Source: Capniomyces stellatus (lineage: Eukaryota; Kickxellomycota; Harpellomycetes; Harpellales; Legeriomycetaceae). From it: 11,421 nt of DNA. The notes under the pieces are model-generated. The model was not told the origin of the DNA. It searched no databases and saw only the letters and a program-made list of their open reading frames with translations. The stretch's first letter is position 1. Every line of letters starts with the position of its first letter. This document shows, piece by piece, positions 1 through 11,421 of the stretch. The translations under genes were made by a program, and so were the position numbers. The stretch covers positions 137,141-148,561 of the forward strand of contig LUVW01000038.1 of the NCBI GenBank assembly GCA_001661515.1, given 5' to 3'.

Positions 1-342
1 CCTTTCCCCCCCCCCCCCCCCAATTTCTTTTCACTCATCAAAGTTGAATATCACGTACATCCAACAACGTAAACAACCGTTTATACTTTTGTACTCTTAA
101 ACTCCTTTATTTATTCAGCATAATTTTTACGTTACTAGGTCTTAGCCTGGAAAAAGCAAAAGATTGACCCCAATATAAAAAATAGTGGTAAACTGATTAC
201 AAGAATACTCCAAAGTGAAGGAAACATTAAAAAAAATATGCAAACATACTTGATTATAACAAAAAAAAAAGTACCATAACTATCAAATAACACATCCCCC
301 CCACTTTTACTTTCTCCTGACTCGTTTACTATTAAAACGTGT
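1..342. other. A+T-rich 3' flank, no gene seen
   Basis: This stretch lies downstream of the minus-strand gene ending at 343. It holds short A runs and a C7 run at 296-302. A 74-codon minus-strand open frame (135-359) overlaps the stop end of the neighbouring gene, is dominated by low-complexity Phe/Ile/Leu codons and resembles no family I know, so I do not call it. It probably contains the 3' UTR and polyadenylation region of the 343-1053 gene. Confidence 0.6.
6..21. repeat. C16 homopolymer at left edge
   Basis: Sixteen consecutive C residues lie five bases inside the left edge. Read outward on the minus strand this is a G run, mirrored by the G13 run at the right edge. The pairing suggests contig ends rather than a functional element. 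Confidence 0.9.
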
Positions 343-1053
343 CTACAAGCCGAAATCATCGTTATCTACGCTACACTTATTCACCAACTCTGTTACACCA
401 AACTCTTTATTATCTCTTTCTTCTCGTTCGTCCTCTGAGTCGCGGTACTCTTCTTCTTCCAATTTCTTCAACATCTTTCTTTCCTCTATTTCTCTTATGC
501 GCTGCTCGTAAAACTCTATATCGTGCAGTTCGGATGCAGTGTAGAACTCTTTTGGAAAGGTTTTATTTCTTTTGTAGCTTTCCAAGCCATTTTCAGTTAA
601 ATGCCGCACAACTTCACCCAACACCAAGTCGGATTTCTTCAGATTTAGATTAACCAACACATAAGAGTGTAGAGTCAAGAATTCAGTACTTTTAATAATC
701 GGCGGTAAATACACAAGTATTGTAAAGAAGATGGCCTCCTCCTCCTTACTCAGCTCTATTAGCTTTAGTTTTTCATCAAAACATTCATCAAGCGGATCTT
801 TGAATCCGCCTATGGTGTACCGCTCTTCTTGACTCGATCCATAGTCATAATTGTACTCTGAATCCTCGTCTCTTGTACTCTTCGCCTCTTTTACTTTAAG
901 CCTGTTCGTTTGAAACGTGTTTAATTGTTCATAAAACTTTGGACCAACACTGCTTTTAGGAATTTTGACCTGCAAAATGTGATTGTGATAATCAACTACT
1001 TTTCCAAATGGAATCTCGTTTGTAGGTAGCTTGCCATAGCCTACAAGTGACAT
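343..1053 (-). CDS. Unrecognised 236-aa acidic protein with charged C-terminal helix
   Basis: Uninterrupted 236-codon frame starting at the ATG complementary to 1051-1053; I do not recognise the family. Residues 1-35 (start MSLVGYGKLP) look folded. Residues 55-80 are a charged, Tyr/Ser/Glu-rich linker. Residues 95-160 mix hydrophobic and charged segments and could form a small helical or winged-helix-like fold. Residues about 175-216 form a highly charged Glu/Arg/Lys helix, probably coiled coil or disordered. There is no signal peptide or convincing membrane span, so a nuclear or cytosolic protein, perhaps a subunit of a larger complex, is plausible (inference). The mixed amino-acid composition and length argue for a real gene despite the A+T-rich setting. 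A T9A9 block lies about 40 bp upstream, where a nucleosome-depleted promoter would be expected. It is divergent from P450-1 across about 1.5 kb. Confidence 0.7.
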   Translation of the reverse strand: MSLVGYGKLPTNEIPFGKVVDYHNHILQVKIPKSSVGPKFYEQLNTFQTNRLKVKEAKSTRDEDSEYNYDYGSSQEERYTIGGFKDPLDECFDEKLKLIELSKEEEAIFFTILVYLPPIIKSTEFLTLHSYVLVNLNLKKSDLVLGEVVRHLTENGLESYKRNKTFPKEFYTASELHDIEFYEQRIREIEERKMLKKLEEEEYRDSEDEREERDNKEFGVTELVNKCSVDNDDFGL

Positions 1054-1110: not shown

Positions 1111-1347
1111 CTGAATAACAGAAAATATTAGAAACGATGGCTTCCACTATTGAAAATTAAAAATACAAATCCTACTAAACAGGATAAAAAAAAAGCATAA
1201 TTGTCACAGGTGGATTTGAATGAATTGAATTTGTACAAAAAAGCCTCAACGGAACAGTTTTGCCGACGGCAATGGTCAATACTACGATTATCCTTCCCGC
1301 CTTGCGTAAGAAGAAAAACTTTGATTAAAGAAAAAAAAACCAAATAA

Positions 1348-1451
1348 AAATGCAATTAAAATCAATAAAAAAAAGTAAATGCAATTAAAGAAAATGCAAT
1401 TAAAGAAAATGCAATTAAAGAAAATGCAATTAAGGAAAATGCAATTAAAAT
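1348..1451 (+). repeat. 15-bp tandem array (five units) plus one offset copy
   Basis: The unit core tgcaattaaa starts at 1351, 1380, 1395, 1410, 1425 and 1440. The last five are exactly 15 bp apart; the first is 29 bp before the second. The block atgcaattaaaatcaat occurs both before the array (1350) and at its end (1439), as if the array grew by repeated slippage inside a duplicated segment. Confidence 0.9.
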
Positions 1452-1552
1452 CAATAAAAAAAAAAGAAAATACAAAGGAAAATACAAAGGAAAATACAAA
1501 GGAAAATACAATTAAAGTGATAAACCAAAAGTATACAAATAAAACGCATTAG
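1379..1552 (+). CDS. Possible 57-aa repeat-encoded small ORF
   Basis: The frame opens at the ATG of the first regularly spaced 15-bp unit, directly after an in-frame TAA, and ends at TAG 1550-1552. The 15-bp units encode repeated Met-Gln-Leu-Lys-Lys (the fourth has Arg), with an ATG in each. After a short Lys-rich joint, the 12-bp units encode repeated Glu-Asn-Thr-Lys, then a 13-residue unique tail rich in Asn, Lys and Thr. Both periods preserve the frame, which would be expected under coding constraint but can also arise by chance. There is no homology I recognise, no clear promoter, and the composition is extreme. Noncoding minisatellite is at least as likely. Confidence 0.2.
   Translation: MQLKKMQLKKMQLKKMQLRKMQLKSIKKKENTKENTKENTKENTIKVINQKYTNKTH
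1466..1513 (+). repeat. 12-bp tandem array (four units)
   Basis: Unit gaaaatacaaag occurs at 1466, 1478, 1490 and, with a changed end (gaaaatacaatt), at 1502. The last unit runs into attaaag, the tail of the 15-bp unit, so the two arrays may share an origin. The period is a multiple of three, like that of the 15-bp array. Confidence 0.9.
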
Positions 1553-2528: not shown

Positions 2529-4609
2529 ATGACCGTCAAAGAGTTGATAATCCGGTTTGCCGCCAAGCAAGTTATTATAGCCGCGATAACTTCACTTGCT
2601 GTCGTGAAGGTAAAACTGCCGCTGCCATGTACTTTTTCTCTCTCCTTGTTTTGCGTTTTATCTTTTGTTTAAACAAGTCGGTAGACCATGATTTATTGTA
2701 AAACGCATACTCCGAGTATTACCAAGTAACATCAATCTTTCTTTGCTTCTTTTTTTACTTTAAAATAAGATCATTTATGCGTACTTCTTTGACAAACTCA
2801 GAAATGTCCCTGGACCATGGTGGGCTCGATTTACTGCGTTGCCTTACTATAAGTCCCTTGTCACAGGCAAATCGACTAACTTTTGCAACAGCATAAGGCT
2901 CGAGTATGGAGAAATAGCCAGAGTGGGTATGTATACAGCAAATCACCCTGTGGTTTTGGATTAGGGTTTAATTAAGCTAAGTCGATATATCTTTGAGAAG
3001 GTTGAGATATTGTTGAGATAATCAATGTTGTTTCGGAACTTCATGTGAACTTGGTTGTATATTTTGCTTAAACAAGTACTATACACTACAATGCGAATAA
3101 ATAGGCCCAAAAAGCCTGATTATCTCTGATAGTAAGGAGGTCAAGAGGTTCCTTTCAGGGTATAGATTCAGAAAAACCAAACTTTATGAAAGCAAGTTGG
3201 TAGCAGAGAACACGTTTACAACAAGGAGTGAAGAGTTCAATAGGATGAGAGTAAGCGTTGACATTATTTAAACACCGTCCCAGCTGGTTTTACGACTTGG
3301 AAACACAGGATTACAACATACTTTTTATATTTACATACAGAGACGCCAGATCGGAGCCGTATTCACAGTCAATGGGCTAATGGCGATTGAAGACCTGATC
3401 ATGGATTCTGGGGTAGTAAGCCTAAAGAAAAGGCTGGATGATGACATCAAAAGCGGTCACGGAGTGGCAAAAGTCAACTACTTTGATTACTTTCAGAACG
3501 TGACTGCGGATGTTATAGGCGTTCTAGCCTACGGAAATACTTTTGGAGCAGTTAAAAACAACGGGCATCCAGTAGTCAGCTGGGTTGATTCAATAATGAA
3601 ACTCATTGGAGTGGTAAGATTTTTTTACTTATTTTTTGAATACGGTATCCCTTAGTGTCCAAGAAAGCGAAGTTTTCCAGTGGCAACATAACTAGCCAAA
3701 CTGATCTTTACAATGTCCAAATAGACAAGAATCATCACCAACGCCAGATACCTGCCTCTTGGACTTAAACATGACTTTGATAAGAGAGATGAATTTTTCG
3801 AATACACAATCGACTCAATAAACAAGAGACGAAAATTGATTGAAAACAGAGAGAAGCCCATCCGAGTTGATATTTTGCAAATATTAATGGATGCCAAAAA
3901 CAACGATGGAAGAAAGCTATCTGAACAAGAGCTAATATCCGAGTCAATTCTCACACTAGCTGCCGGTGTTGATACATCAAGCGTCACCATGGCATGGTTG
4001 GTGCAGTTCTATCTACTATATCCCAGCGTATACAAGCGCGTGGTTGAGGAAGTTAGAACAGAGTTTCCTGACAGGTCGCGTTTGATACACTTTCAAGAGG
4101 CTCGCAAAAAACTGCCTTATACTCTGGCCACAATCTATGAAAGTATTAGGATGAAATCGGTTATAGGTGGATGTCTGCCAAGGGAGTTAACTGGCGAAGG
4201 AGTTGATATTAGTGGCTACTATATTCCACCAGGAGTGACTTTAGGACTCTTTATCGACGGAGCACACAAAGATGCGTCGGTTTGGGACAGCCCAGAGTCG
4301 TTCAATCCAGACAGATTCATGGGGGCTGAGGGCGAGCTGAAGCAGAAGGATGTTTTGGGGTTCTCGTTTGGTGTTAGGATCTGTCCTGGGAGAAACTTGG
4401 CGTGGATGGAGATTCTAACGGTTATTCCAAATCTGGTTCGAGACTACGATCTGGAACTGCCTAGTGATTCACTACACTCACCCAGTACTATTGATCAAAA
4501 CCGGTGCAACGAGCCGCTGCTATTTGAAGACATATCTTTGTTTACGAGAAATCCAGCCAAGCCATCTCGTGATTGTAACGTGATAATAAGACCTTGTCAT
4601 TATTACTAA
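2529..4609 (+). CDS. Microsomal cytochrome P450 (P450-1), five exons, 513 aa
   Basis: Class II fungal P450: a heme-thiolate monooxygenase, expected in the ER membrane with a reductase partner. Substrate unknown. Exons by my splicing: 2529-2609, 2770-2926, 3105-3250, 3341-3613, 3725-4609. Introns are 160, 178, 90 and 111 nt (donors GTAAAA, GTATGT, GTAAGC, GTAAGA; all end in AG), phases 0, 1, 0, 0. The 513 aa is normal for the family. In order: membrane anchor about 10-34; hinge PGPWW 41-45; I-helix AGVDTS 299-304 with the acid-alcohol pair D302/T303; K-helix ExxR E358/R361; NPDRF; heme loop FSFGVRICPG with ligand Cys439. All catalytic hallmarks are intact, so this is not a pseudogene. Exon coordinates are supported by exact exon-length agreement with the inverted paralogue P450-2. 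Relative to that copy, TAA replaces a CAA codon and trims four C-terminal residues. The last exon appears recently converted by, or to, P450-2. Confidence 0.9.
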
Positions 4610-4645
4610 AAATGCCACTTAATGCTATACCGAAGCACAGAATAT
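3985..4645 (+). repeat. Left arm of the P450 inverted repeat
   Basis: This covers the 3' part of the P450-1 last exon plus its 3' flank. It matches the minus strand of 4851-5510. In 3985-4606 I count 21 mismatches in 622 bp; identical blocks run 3985-4154, 4174-4298 and 4300-4521. Seventeen mismatches fall at 4155-4173 and 4522-4551. The match resumes in the 3' flank, with 4622-4645 identical to the reverse complement of 4851-4874. Upstream of 3985 similarity drops sharply. Confidence 0.93.
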
Positions 4646-4752
4646 TCGACTTGAAAATTTTTATTTAAGTTTTTAATTATTTTTTTATTCTGATTTTTAT
4701 ATGTTTTACTGAAATGTTTGGTTGTTTTTATATTTGTTTAATTCGGTGTGCT

Positions 4753-4792
4753 AATAAAATAACCTTTATCATCTCCAATAAAATAACCTTTA
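4753..4792 (+). terminator. Repeated AATAAA-bearing element, likely P450-1 polyadenylation region
   Basis: The 16-bp block aataaaataaccttta occurs twice, at 4753-4768 and 4777-4792 (24-bp period), in the spacer between the two stop codons. Each copy holds an AATAAA, a known yeast and fungal positioning element for 3'-end formation. On the minus strand, TTTATT at 4660-4665 gives an AATAAA for P450-2, so the two 3' UTRs probably overlap. Function is inferred from position. Confidence 0.45.
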
Positions 4793-4850
4793 ATATACTA
4801 AGCGCCTAGGATAAAACACATCCTGACACTTGGCAGAATTTCCAAGTCGG

Positions 4851-5510
4851 ATATTCTGTGCTTCGGTATAGCATCAAAGAGCGTTTTGGTAATAAGGACA
4901 AGGTCTTATGATCAAGTTACAATCACGAGATGGCTTGGCTGGACTTCTGATAAAAACGGAAATGTCCTCAAACAGCAGCGGCTCGTTGCACCGGTTTTGA
5001 TCAATAGTACTGGGTGAGTGTAGTGAATCACTAGGCAGTTCCAGATCGTAGTCTCGAACCAGATTTGGAATAACCGTTAGAATCTCCATCCACGCCAAGT
5101 TTCTCCCAGGACAGATCCTAACACCAAACGAGAACCCCAAAACATCCTTCTGCTTCAGCTCGCCCTCAGCCCCCATGAATCTGTCTGGATTGAACAACTC
5201 TGGGCTGTCCCAAACCGACGCATCTTTGTGTGCTCCGTCGATAAAGAGTCCTAAAGTCACTCCTGGTGGAATATAGTAGCCACTAATATCAACTCCTTCG
5301 CCAGTTAACTCCCTTGGCAGATCTCCGCCTACTATTGATATCATCCTAATACTTTCATAGATTGTGGCCAGAGTATAAGGCAGTTTTTTGCGAGCCTCTT
5401 GAAAGTGTATCAAACGCGACCTGTCAGGAAACTCTGTTCTAACTTCCTCAACCACGCGCTTGTATACGCTGGGATATAGTAGATAGAACTGCACCAACCA
5501 TGCCATGGTG
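4851..5510 (-). repeat. Right arm of the P450 inverted repeat
   Basis: Reverse-complement partner of 3985-4645, covering the end of the P450-2 last exon and about 25 bp past its stop. Weak similarity continues a few bases further into the spacer. The unmatched spacer between arms is roughly 180-205 bp. Confidence 0.93.
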
Positions 5511-6884
5511 GCGCTTGTTGAGTCAGCACCAGCAGCCAACATAAGCATGGTTTCCGAAACCAACTCAGACTCGGACAATTTGTTTCCATTGTTGTTTTTG
5601 GCATCAATAAATACTTGCAAAATATCAGACCTGCCGGCCTTTTTATTGCTCTCGACTAAATTTTGTCTTTCAGCTATTGCTTGTGCCGTACACTCGTAAA
5701 AAACTCTTCTGCTTTCAAAGTCCTGCTCAAGTCCAAGCGGAAGATATCTTGCAAGCGGGATATTTCCTACCTATTTTTACAGATACCAAGTTTCAACCCA
5801 TTAGAAAATATAGAAATTTAAAGCATATAACTTTGTCAAATGCAAACCAAAAGGGGTTTACCATTGCGCCAAGTCTGATAAAGGATTTGACCCATCCGAT
5901 CACTGGGTGGCCATTGTCTCTGACAGCATTAAATGATTTCCCATAAGCCAAAACTCCGATAATGTCTGTTGTCAGGTTATGGAAGTCGCTGTAATAATTT
6001 ATTTTTGCCACTCCGTTGCCGCTCTTAATAACAGCGTCCAATTTATTCTTCAAGCTAACAATTCCAGCGTTTTCAACCAGGTCTTCGACTTCCAACAACC
6101 CGCCAATAGCGAAAATGGATCCCATTTGGCGTCTCTGTTAACATACATTTAACGAATAATTTCAAGTGACTCTTCTTTTTTTTTTGGAATCAATACTATC
6201 AGTCTGTTTTATATTTACTTTCTGTTGTACTTGGTGTATTTACTCACCCTCATCCTGTTAAAATCTTCATTTTTTGTCGAGAACGTATTTTCGTGCACTA
6301 GGTCGTTGTCGTAAAGCTTCGTTTTCCGGTACTTGTAGCTAGATAATAACTTTTTGACTGCTTTGCTGCCCGAGAATAACACAAAGTCTGGGCCTACAAC
6401 ACAAGTATTAAAATATTCGCATACATGTCTATAAAAACACTAAAACTTGTATTGTCTTTACTGTGATGTTGAAATTCCGTGCCGAACACACACGTCAAAA
6501 ACGTCAAAGTTAGGTTAGGTATCTTGAACAACCGTGTTTACCTATTCTGACAACGTCGCCATATCTGAGTCTCATGTCGTTACAAAACTGTGTTACACTG
6601 CCGGTGATAACAGCTTTGTAGTATGGTAACTTGGTGAATCGCGCCCACCATGGCCCAGGTATGTTCTTCAGACTGTTGAAAAAGTACGCCGATATGACCT
6701 ATTTGGCGCATATAAATAAGTTACAGGTTTATGTCATTGTTTTATAGGCAAAAAAGAATAGCTACGGCTATATTTTGATAGCCTGTAGAGTAAAAATTAC
6801 TTTGACAACGGCTAGAGAGGTAAGAGTGATAATGACCACTTGTTTTAAACCAAAGCTCTTCACTATATCCTTAGCTTCCATCAT
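4874..6884 (-). CDS. Microsomal cytochrome P450 (P450-2), five exons, 518 aa
   Basis: Paralogue of P450-1, facing it tail to tail. Exons in coding order: 6884-6801, 6698-6542, 6393-6248, 6134-5862, 5770-4874. Introns are 102, 148, 113 and 91 nt with donors GTAATT, GTAAAC, GTGAGT and GTAAAC, and all end in AG. Intron phases match P450-1 exactly. Two tandem ATGs open the gene (6884 and 6881); the second aligns with the P450-1 start, giving 517 or 518 aa. Visible: N-terminal hydrophobic anchor, PGPWW hinge, I-helix AGADST (Ser directly after the acid where P450-1 has Thr), ExxR, NPDRF and the FSFGVRICPG heme loop with Cys440. The C-terminus ends QNAL, four residues longer than P450-1. Exon 4 is about 55% identical to P450-1 (50 of 91 residues by hand), but the last ~205 residues are about 95% identical. 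Expected to be an ER monooxygenase; substrate unknown, perhaps different from P450-1 because the differing residues cluster at substrate-contact positions. Confidence 0.9.
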
Positions 6885-8204: not shown

Positions 8205-9290
8205 TTACAATCTTCCCAGAAACATTTGTTGGTACTTGACTCTGCACTCATGAAGCTCACCGCGGTATTTGATTGGCTCGCAGACGCAGTTTCCTATAGT
8301 ATCGGAGAGTTTGGGGCAGTAGCCTAGGTTTGGGTGGAAATAGCCGAAATCGTTAAATAAATGCACCTGGGATTTATCCAAAAACATAGACACGGCGATG
8401 GAGCGGACGGGAGCGTCGCCCCACCGTTCATAAAAGAAGCCGCCAGCTTTGTCGAGATAGTTGAAGAAGTCTGAGTATGCTTCGGACCTGAAAAAGTCGA
8501 GGTCGGCTATTTCAAAGTTTGTCCAGAACTGGCAGCCGTTGTAGTTGCCATGGCTATCAAGAACCCAGTCAAGCATGTTGTTCTTGTTGACGTGGTGTGG
8601 GTAGACCTGAATAAAGTCGGATACGGTGTCTGCTAGGGTTTCTGTTGTTTCCGAGACTTCCTTTGGTGACATGATCCAGCCGTACTTTTTGTTGTTTACC
8701 TTCATAAACTTGAAGGGATCGTATAGTATGTCACAAAAGAATTTGGCGTCAGGTTCTATTCTCCAAGAGTATTTGAGGTTTTTCAGCAGCGGGTGCTTGT
8801 AGAAAAGCCCAGACTGGAACCTGCTCATGAACCTGAAATTCTCGCTGTCTGCGTACGAGTAGTTTTTCGTTTTTCTTACATACGCGGCCCGTTCTTGGTT
8901 GATCCACTTTGGGTATCCCCAGGACTCGTTTTCTAAAGTTCCGAACGTCACATTTGCCTTTATCAACTCCCTAACGCCGTCTTTAAACTCATTGGTAAAC
9001 TTTTGGTAGTTTAAGAATATGTATGGGTAGTTATGTCTGCGATTAAATCTGTCTTCGACTTGTCTCACGGTATTTATTATTCCGTCCAAGTCAGAGTTGC
9101 TGACTAGTGTCACAAACGCAGCATTCTCTTTAGGGCTTCCATCGTAATCAAAGTCGTATTTGCCGTACAGAAATCTCTCGTCGCTCTGTTTACTGCTGTA
9201 GTTAAGTCGCACTTGTCTATAGCCAAGTACCTGGTTTAAACTTCCTACTAAATATAGCGTGGCGGTAACTATGGCCACAAAGTTGACCAT
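8205..9290 (-). CDS. Kre2/Mnt1/Ktr-family (GT15) alpha-1,2-mannosyltransferase, 361 aa
   Basis: Golgi-type glycosyltransferase expected to move mannose from GDP-mannose to O- or N-linked glycans of secreted and cell-wall proteins, with Mn2+. A signal-anchor at residues about 3-23 gives type II topology. The catalytic domain starts near residue 55. Visible family motifs: YPYIFLN (88-94), W-R-I-E-P-D with the EPD acidic motif at 179-181, FWTNFEIADLDFFR (256-269) with E260 at the position of the proposed catalytic Glu of Kre2, GGFFYERWGDAPV (283-295), and the His/Cys segment near 319-325. Lumenal Cys 186, 253, 325, 335, 337 and 349 fit disulfides. N-glycosylation sequons lie at N29, N113, N121 and N143. 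The protein is shorter than Kre2 (about 440 aa) because the stem between anchor and catalytic domain is short. The ATG at 9290 is the only one available in frame: the frame stays open upstream to a TAA at 9423-9425 without another ATG. Which KTR subfamily member it is cannot be decided by eye. Confidence 0.93.
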   Translation of the reverse strand: MVNFVAIVTATLYLVGSLNQVLGYRQVRLNYSSKQSDERFLYGKYDFDYDGSPKENAAFVTLVSNSDLDGIINTVRQVEDRFNRRHNYPYIFLNYQKFTNEFKDGVRELIKANVTFGTLENESWGYPKWINQERAAYVRKTKNYSYADSENFRFMSRFQSGLFYKHPLLKNLKYSWRIEPDAKFFCDILYDPFKFMKVNNKKYGWIMSPKEVSETTETLADTVSDFIQVYPHHVNKNNMLDWVLDSHGNYNGCQFWTNFEIADLDFFRSEAYSDFFNYLDKAGGFFYERWGDAPVRSIAVSMFLDKSQVHLFNDFGYFHPNLGYCPKLSDTIGNCVCEPIKYRGELHECRVKYQQMFLGRL

Positions 9291-11408: not shown

Positions 11409-11421
11409 GGGGGGGGGGGGG
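11409..11421. repeat. G13 homopolymer at right edge
   Basis: The window ends inside a run of at least thirteen G. With the outward-reading G run at the left edge, this suggests the window is a whole contig broken at homopolymers, or trailing poly-G sequencing artefacts. Confidence 0.85.

What the first reader, a model, noticed from the sequence alone, without database searches (positions are those of the whole stretch)
3985..5510. Gene conversion between two inverted P450 genes leaves divergence concentrated at substrate-recognition segments
Seen directly: over 622 aligned bases there are 21 differences. Eight lie in 19 bp (4155-4173) and nine in 30 bp (4522-4551); only four lie in the other 573 bp. 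The first patch encodes the residues just after the K-helix ExxR (K-S-V-I-G-G-C versus I-S-I-V-G-G-D), the textbook SRS5 position. The second lies in the C-terminal hairpin region that carries SRS6 (L-F-T-R-N versus V-F-I-R-S). The conversion tract also stops right at the I-helix/SRS4 motif. Conversion of the heme scaffold while substrate-contact patches stay different would produce two enzymes with a shared core and distinct specificity. The selection part is inference.
Basis: partly seen in the sequence, partly recalled or inferred. Interest (0 to 1): 0.75.

Follow-up and report, generated by a model that had tools for sequence, protein, structure and literature searches.

The report
Patchy gene conversion between P450 genes
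In a fungus that appears related to insect-gut fungi, one cytochrome P450 gene has overwritten most of the catalytic half of its mirror-image neighbour but left short old stretches that code for likely parts of the substrate pocket, a neat new example of a known evolutionary pattern whose cause (selection or chance) is still open.

Summary
Two intact five-exon P450 genes lie tail to tail, A (+) and B (-). Conversion is well supported and its direction can be given: upstream, B is sister to a third paralogue (C13); in the tract A is as close to C13 as B is. So B was donor and A recipient, recently: 0 of about 122 silent sites differ. The patches keep old silent divergence (pS 0.55 and 0.71; upstream 0.81), so they are unconverted sequence, not new substitutions. 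They lie at SRS5 and SRS6; two random islands do so with P about 0.006. But under stricter segmentation patch 2 is only the tract's 3' edge, and one island in SRS5 alone has P 0.06. pN/pS in the patches is below 1, and a second P450 pair had SRS4 and SRS5 converted, its tract ending at SRS6. Selection is plausible, not shown. New member of a known kind: divergence peaks under gene conversion.

The parts
2529..4609 (+). P450 gene A (recipient), 513 aa, exons 2529-2609, 2770-2926, 3105-3250, 3341-3613, 3725-4609
   Evidence: Splice sites chosen by hand (GT-AG), spliced frame open, same intron positions as B, C13 and C35; PF00067 on most of the last exon E 3.4e-49
4874..6881 (-). P450 gene B (donor), 517 aa, exons 6881-6801, 6698-6542, 6393-6248, 6134-5862, 5770-4874
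   Evidence: Splice sites chosen by hand, frame open; PF00067 on most of the last exon E 1.5e-46
3725..3984 (+). Unconverted 5' part of A exon 5, holds the I-helix AGVDT motif (3962-3976; SRS4 by recalled borders)
   Evidence: 94 differing columns against B
3985..4154 (+). Converted segment 1 in A (partner in B 5510-5341)
   Evidence: 0 differences
4155..4173 (+). Unconverted island 1 in A: residues 363-369, R+2 to R+8 after ExxR (SRS5); partner in B 5340-5322
   Evidence: 8 differences, pS 0.55; loop after the K helix in the model of a 49% identical homologue
4174..4521 (+). Converted segment 2 in A, holds the haem Cys-439 codon (4382-4384); partner in B 5321-4974
   Evidence: 1 difference, at 4299; Cys number
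4522..4551 (+). Diverged patch 2: residues 485-495, C-terminal beta-hairpin (SRS6); island or 3' edge of the tract; partner in B 4973-4944
   Evidence: 9 differences, pS 0.71; hairpin in the model
4552..4579 (+). Identical segment 3 (partner in B 4943-4916)
   Evidence: 0 differences in 28 bp
4580..4621 (+). Third diverged patch: last codons, stop codon of A and start of the 3' UTR; not a substrate-recognition segment
   Evidence: 10 differing columns
4622..4645 (+). Identical 3' UTR stretch, inside a second inverted repeat (arms 4609-4659 and 4837-4887)

Best explanation
A and B are two intact, tail-to-tail P450 paralogues whose 3' ends form close inverted arms (272 bp between the main arms). 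Recently, sequence of B was copied into A by non-reciprocal recombination, from just after the I-helix motif to the start of the SRS6 hairpin and, patchily, beyond (shown by sequence comparison). The two genes stayed different in the SRS4 end, in a 19-bp piece of SRS5 and in SRS6 (shown). A is therefore a hybrid: its own N-terminal half and likely substrate-contact segments on the catalytic and haem-binding core of B. Inferred: conversions that also replaced these segments were removed by selection, because they would have made A a functional copy of B. The conversion part I hold at about 0.93; the selection part at about 0.5; the confidence below is for the whole statement.
For: Direction: upstream of the tract third-position differences are A-C13 171/305 and B-C13 121/305; in the tract both are 75/179 (Fisher between regions: A-C13 p 0.0035, B-C13 p 0.63); quartet site support flips from B+C13 (58 of 115 informative sites, bootstrap 0.9985) to A+B (46 of 46). 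Recency: 0 silent differences at about 122 sites in the tract. Patches old: pS 0.55 and 0.71 against 0.81 upstream and 0.67 in the adjacent part of the exon. Position: random placement of 19- and 30-bp islands puts both at least half inside SRS5 and SRS6 with P 0.0056. The patch windows are not outstandingly divergent in three unconverted paralogue comparisons (13-44% of windows are at least as divergent), so a local homology block is not forced. No other copy of either patch version was found in the genome at up to 3 mismatches. A second pair, C12a/C12b, has a tract with 0 differences at about 130 silent sites (20-codon bins from codon 61 to 260) that ends within two codons of the start of patch 2.
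Against: pN/pS in the patches is below 1 and in patch 2 below the upstream value. Strict segmentation leaves only one bracketed island; one random 19-bp island is at least half inside SRS5 with P 0.062. A third diverged patch lies at the stop codon and 3' UTR, where no substrate contact exists. C12a/C12b had SRS4 and SRS5 converted, and in mammalian CYP1A1/CYP1A2 conversion homogenised SRS1 and SRS5 (PMC3199271, passages). In patch 2, of 6 sites where A and B differ and one equals C13, B matches C13 once, against 64% upstream (P 0.026; both patches 5 of 13, P 0.056): in patch 2 it is B that looks changed, which the plain 'old A piece' reading does not predict. Sharp edges and equal recency of the segments also fit a single patchy event. 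The SRS choice was made after seeing the patches.
Confidence: 0.5

Rival explanations
1. Neutral patchy conversion: one recent event (or a few) between strongly diverged copies, with patchy mismatch repair or strand switching, left short recipient stretches at places that happen to code for SRS5 and SRS6. The tract edges may lie where local divergence was higher.
For: Sharp island edges, all main segments equally recent, a third patch outside any SRS. One bracketed island in SRS5 is not rare by chance (P 0.062). SRS5 and SRS6 are the faster-evolving parts of the C-terminal half also in the less similar pairs (difference rates 0.61 and 0.63 against 0.47 elsewhere). Another pair has a near-identical stretch that ends about 30 codons after ExxR (L030/L033; SRS not mapped there).
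Against: Two-island coincidence with SRS5 and SRS6 P 0.0056; patch windows only moderately divergent in unconverted pairs, so windows at least as divergent were converted through.
Confidence: 0.39
2. Assembly or phasing artefact: identical segments longer than the reads were joined wrongly, so that patch versions are assigned to the wrong gene or the tract is copied twice.
For: Identical runs of 170 and 222 bp; runs of N next to other near-identical P450 copies in this assembly (L019, L034), though the tool says N may also mean withheld sequence.
Against: No N anywhere in the window; both versions of each patch are present once each; a true copy about 35% diverged would not assemble into an identical one (inference).
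Confidence: 0.06
3. Patches, patch 2 of B above all, brought in by micro-conversion from a third P450 gene.
For: Several related P450 genes exist; B matches C13 in patch 2 at 1 of 6 informative sites, fewer than expected (P 0.026).
Against: Neither version of either patch was found elsewhere in the genome at up to 3 mismatches in 31 or 38 bases. A lost, more diverged or unassembled donor is not excluded.
Confidence: 0.03
4. Full conversion followed by rapid adaptive substitution at SRS5 and SRS6.
For: Of 10 amino-acid differences in residues 306-505, 7 lie in the two segments.
Against: Silent differences in the patches are about as dense as in unconverted DNA, while the rest of the tract has none. 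Selection on protein does not do that.
Confidence: 0.02

Closest known systems
Human red/green opsin genes, exon 5 (Teshima and Innan 2008, as described in the review PMC3924837; passages read; the 2008 paper itself is not held)
   Same: Duplicates under gene conversion with a local peak of divergence around residues that set specificity
   Different: There two primates are compared and the residues are known to shift colour sensitivity; here one genome, sharper edges, direction known, function unknown
GOT1p1/GOT1p2 in the copepod Tigriopus (PMC3728101; abstract and outline seen)
   Same: Mosaic of low- and high-divergence segments in paralogues with apparent ongoing conversion
   Different: Several populations there; one genome here; enzyme family differs
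CYP1A1/CYP1A2 of mammals (PMC3199271; passages read)
   Same: Neighbouring, oppositely oriented P450 genes (head to head) with conversion; an SRS5 residue sets specificity
   Different: There conversion homogenised SRS1 and SRS5, the opposite of this case
Helicoverpa CYP6B pairs (PMC7830528; passages read)
   Same: P450 paralogue pairs shaped by duplication and polar conversion
   Different: 5'-polar there; here the 3' half and with islands
P450 tandem duplication in the zygomycete Conidiobolus coronatus (PMC6032100; search listing and start of abstract only)
   Same: P450 genes multiplied by tandem duplication in an early-diverging fungus
   Different: 'Gene conversion' has 0 occurrences in that listing row

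Membership tests
Cytochrome P450 (PF00067) | Profile match above the curated cut-off | tested here: met
   168.3 and 159.6 bits against a cut-off of 22.8 for last-exon parts of A and B
Cytochrome P450 (PF00067) | I-helix AGxDT, K-helix ExxR, haem-loop Cys | tested here: met
   AGVDT 299, ESIR 358, Cys 439 in A
Cytochrome P450 (PF00067) | P450 fold | tested here: met
   Not A itself but its 49% identical homologue P0001: pLDDT 90.1, TM (query) 0.73 to CYP3A7 and 0.75 to CYP505A30
Gene-conversion pair | Tract whose tree differs from the flanks | tested here: met
   Quartet support flips at the tract
Gene-conversion pair | Non-reciprocal transfer | tested here: met
   Tract of A has the distance to C13 that B has upstream
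Divergence peak maintained by selection under gene conversion | Peak at functional sites | tested here: inconclusive
   Positions fit SRS5/SRS6 (borders recalled); contact with substrate not measured
Divergence peak maintained by selection under gene conversion | Peak recurs in independent conversions or species | tested here: inconclusive
   C12a/C12b agrees at SRS6, disagrees at SRS4 and SRS5; Smittium culicis P0007/P0009 are mosaic with differences at residues 361-400 among others, protein level only
Divergence peak maintained by selection under gene conversion | Excess of replacement over silent change in the peak | tested here: not met
   pN/pS 0.59 and 0.22; not strictly required by the model, since linked silent sites are retained too, so the claim is left open and I do not file the case as a member
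Divergence peak maintained by selection under gene conversion | Fixed difference in a population sample | not testable with these tools
   One genome held, no relatives

The most novel reading that the evidence does not exclude
In this fungal lineage P450 paralogues are repeatedly rebuilt by conversion of the I-helix-to-haem core while N-terminal halves and pocket segments stay private to each copy, so that conversion works as a standing device that keeps the catalytic core in repair and lets specificity segments drift apart. A/B, C12a/C12b, and the identical or near-identical C-terminal stretches of L029/L034 and L030/L033 in this genome, and P0007/P0009 in Smittium culicis, would be instances.
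Probability: 0.12. Interest if true: 0.6.

Novelty: new member of a known kind. Interest (0 to 1): 0.38.

Why it matters
If selection kept the patches, the genome itself points to the seven residues that separate two P450 specificities on a shared core, a ready-made minimal chimera experiment; in the one Harpellales genome paper I looked into, the term P450 has no occurrence (PMC5954228, term count). It would also be a P450 case opposite to CYP1A1/CYP1A2, where conversion erased SRS5 differences. If neutral, it is a clear, datable example of patchy conversion between copies about 35% diverged in their unconverted parts, in a tail-to-tail inverted arrangement.

Tried and rejected
Third-donor origin of the patches: four genome searches found each version only at its own place; not fully excluded, because patch 2 of B is less like C13 than expected. 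New adaptive substitutions after full conversion: set aside on silent-site density. Strong local homology block as a forced cause: patch windows only moderately divergent in three paralogue pairs; not excluded. L010/L019 as a further conversion pair: identical through the 3' end but one copy abuts a run of N, so set aside. L025/L026: 2,659 bp identical on two contigs, no information. L028, L029, L030, L031, L033, L034: distant P450-like family, used only for stretch positions; SRS not mapped on them. SRS6 could not be aligned residue by residue to a solved structure: the HMMER alignments shown end before it, so that placement rests on the predicted hairpin and on recalled numbering. SRS borders (CYP2C9 numbering after Gotoh) and the place of CYP1A residue 382 relative to ExxR are recalled; that residue 382 lies in SRS5 and sets specificity is. 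A genome-wide control of how often P450 conversion edges fall in SRS was not possible with so few pairs. Literature: in the listed rows (20 of 48; 15 of 246; 15 of 21; 15 of 40; 10 of 36) no title or abstract start reports this pattern in Harpellales P450s; that is all I can say on print. I read passages of PMC3924837, PMC5954228, PMC3199271, PMC7830528 and two places of PMC3229566; abstract and outline of PMC3728101; outline and one section of PMC4974312.

Full report
What is there. The window carries two intact P450 genes in mirror-image, tail-to-tail order. A (+) has exons 2529-2609, 2770-2926, 3105-3250, 3341-3613 and 3725-4609 (513 aa); B (-) has 6881-6801, 6698-6542, 6393-6248, 6134-5862 and 5770-4874 (517 aa). 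Splice sites were chosen by hand; both spliced frames read without a stop and share intron positions with two other paralogues, C13 (L017) and C35 (L016). Last-exon parts match PF00067 at E 3.4e-49 and 1.5e-46. The 3' ends form inverted arms 3714-4611 and 4884-5781 with 272 bp between them, and a second short pair in the 3' UTRs.

Where it comes from. The genome held has 24.5 Mb in 59 contigs. The best outside homologues of A are Smittium proteins (best 49% identity; 38 proteins at E <= 0.001 among 7,993 scored candidates), and the neighbouring mannosyltransferase gene is also closest to Smittium (57-59% for the first four listed). So this is most likely a member of the Harpellales, insect-gut fungi, or near them. 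Capniomyces stellatus (24.8 Mb, 72 scaffolds, GC 37.8%; PMC4974312, section read) would fit in size, and the window's GC is 36.6%, but this identification is a guess.

The observation. Before 3985, 94 columns of exon 5 differ. Segmentation at switch probability 0.01 gives: identical 3985-4154; diverged 4155-4173; identical but for one site 4174-4521; diverged 4522-4551; identical 4552-4579; diverged 4580-4621; identical 4622-4645; diverged after that. At 0.001 and 0.0001 everything from 4522 on is one diverged block. So the first patch is a true island; the second is an island or the 3' edge of the tract.

Conversion and its direction. Upstream of the tract (305 codons) A-B differ at 0.370 of sites, A-C13 at 0.348 and B-C13 at 0.261: B and C13 are sisters. 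In the tract (179 codons) A-C13 and B-C13 are 0.246 and 0.248. At third positions A-C13 falls from 171/305 to 75/179 (Fisher p 0.0035), B-C13 hardly changes (121/305 to 75/179, p 0.63), and the three comparisons with C35 do not change (p 0.50-0.92). Informative quartet sites upstream are 26 for A+B, 58 for B+C13, 31 for A+C13 (bootstrap for B+C13 0.9985); in the tract 46, 0, 0; in the two patches 0, 0, 3. The tract is of B type, so B was donor and A recipient. No silent difference at about 122 silent sites makes it recent (rough upper 95% bound on pS 0.025).

What the patches are. Silent divergence in patch 1 is 3 of 5.5 sites and in patch 2 is 5 of 7.0 sites (pS 0.55, 0.71), like the adjacent unconverted part (0.67) and the whole upstream region (0.81). 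Replacement divergence is 0.32 and 0.15. Silent sites would not differ so much if the patches were new changes under selection on the protein. They are old differences that the conversion did not remove. Four genome searches found each version once only. One result does not fit neatly: in patch 2, B equals C13 at 1 of 6 informative sites and A at 5, although upstream B equals C13 at 182 of 285; P is 0.026 for patch 2 and 0.056 for both patches together. So in patch 2 it may be B that changed, by fast evolution there or by a transfer from an unknown gene.

Where they lie in the protein. Patch 1 is residues 363-369, positions R+2 to R+8 after the ExxR arginine 361. The ungapped alignment with a solved CYP2B chain sets it against SDLIPIG. 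In the model of the homologue P0001 (pLDDT 90.1) this is the loop between the K helix (359-371) and the next strand (378-382); patch 2 falls on a hairpin formed by strands 497-499 and 502-505 of P0001 (my residue mapping). The model is a P450 fold (TM 0.73-0.75 to the first two hits). By recalled Gotoh borders these are SRS5 and SRS6, and the tract begins right after SRS4. Residue 382 of CYP1A, an SRS5 specificity switch, is R+5 by recalled sequence; A has Ile and B has Val there. Distances to the haem could not be measured with these tools.

Chance or selection. Random placement of two islands of these sizes puts both at least half inside SRS5 and SRS6 with P 0.0056, and lets each touch an SRS with P 0.023. 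If only the bracketed island is counted, P is 0.062. These numbers were computed after the pattern had been seen. In three unconverted pairs the patch windows are moderately, not extremely, divergent (13-44% of windows reach the same level), so a simple homology block is possible but not compelling. Against selection: pN/pS is not raised above 1, a third diverged patch lies at the stop codon, and the main segments look equally recent.

Other pairs. C12a/C12b (same strand, same contig) share a tract with 0 differences at about 130 silent sites from codon 61 to codon 260 of 295 in 20-codon bins; it ends at the codon equivalent to residue 487 of A, at the start of SRS6, but it includes SRS4 and SRS5. 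In a distant P450-like family L029/L034 have no silent difference from codon 321 to 520 and L030/L033 one from 261 to 420. Among 31 sequences (A, B, C13 and P0001-P0028), 12 pairs with enough overlap have a C-terminal half more than 78% identical. Apart from A/B, 9 of 11 have more differences per residue in SRS5+SRS6 than elsewhere and 6 of 11 reach a one-sided Fisher p below 0.05; P0004/P0012 and P0018/P0024 show no excess (SRS6 is not covered in the latter), and the pairs share members. Less similar pairs show a weaker excess (0.61 and 0.63 against 0.47). So these segments evolve fast in general. P0007/P0009 of S. culicis, listed on contigs of the same length (30,908) and so presumably on one contig, are mosaic: near identical in residues 121-200 (3 of 80 differ) and 321-360 (0 of 40), very different in 211-240 (18 of 30), 361-400 (21 of 40) and the N-terminal part (A numbering); without their DNA I cannot tell conversion from selection there.

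Compared with what is known. Peaks of divergence kept by selection while conversion homogenises the rest are described for primate opsins, and mentioned for Drosophila and yeast genes (PMC3924837, passages); mosaic divergence under conversion is reported for copepod GOT1 (PMC3728101, abstract). P450 conversion is known too, with the opposite result at SRS5 in CYP1A. This case is a new member of the kind 'local divergence peak in a converted pair', with unusual clarity on direction and age, and without functional or population data; I do not file it under 'maintained by selection'.

Verdict. The finding is real and the conversion reading right. The statement that it makes two enzymes with a shared core and distinct pockets is a fair inference. 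That selection did it stands at about even odds against patchy neutral conversion.

Noticed in passing
L015 (G000:C12:873500-881500): A second P450 pair, same strand, with a conversion-like tract of several hundred bases without silent differences that ends at the start of SRS6.
   Followed up: partly
L011 (G000:C5:672300-674800): P450 paralogue with an in-frame stop inside the I-helix motif; looks like a pseudogene. Left as it is.
   Followed up: no
L025 and L026 (G000:C28 and C38): 2,659 bp 100% identical in inverted sense on two contigs, with a P450-like gene: very recent duplication or an assembly effect.
   Followed up: no
L025-L034: Divergent P450-like proteins of about 545-565 aa with long open frames and near-identical copies; some pairs have silent-identical or near-identical C-terminal stretches.
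   Followed up: partly
L010 and L019 (G000:C23): About 850 bp nearly identical 3' ends of P450 genes roughly 12 kb apart; one copy abuts a run of N.
   Followed up: partly
window 4522-4551: In patch 2 gene B, not A, is the copy that departs from C13 (1 of 6 sites shared).
   Followed up: partly
window 8205-9290 (-): KTR-type alpha-1,2-mannosyltransferase gene (PF01793), closest to Smittium.
   Followed up: partly
window 1347-1535: Repeats of AAAATGCAATTAAAG-like 15-mers in A+T-rich intergenic DNA.
   Followed up: no
window 7-21 and 11410-11421: The window begins with a long C run and ends with a G run.
   Followed up: no
window 343-1053 (-): Open frame of 236 aa without a Pfam match at E <= 0.001.
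   Followed up: no
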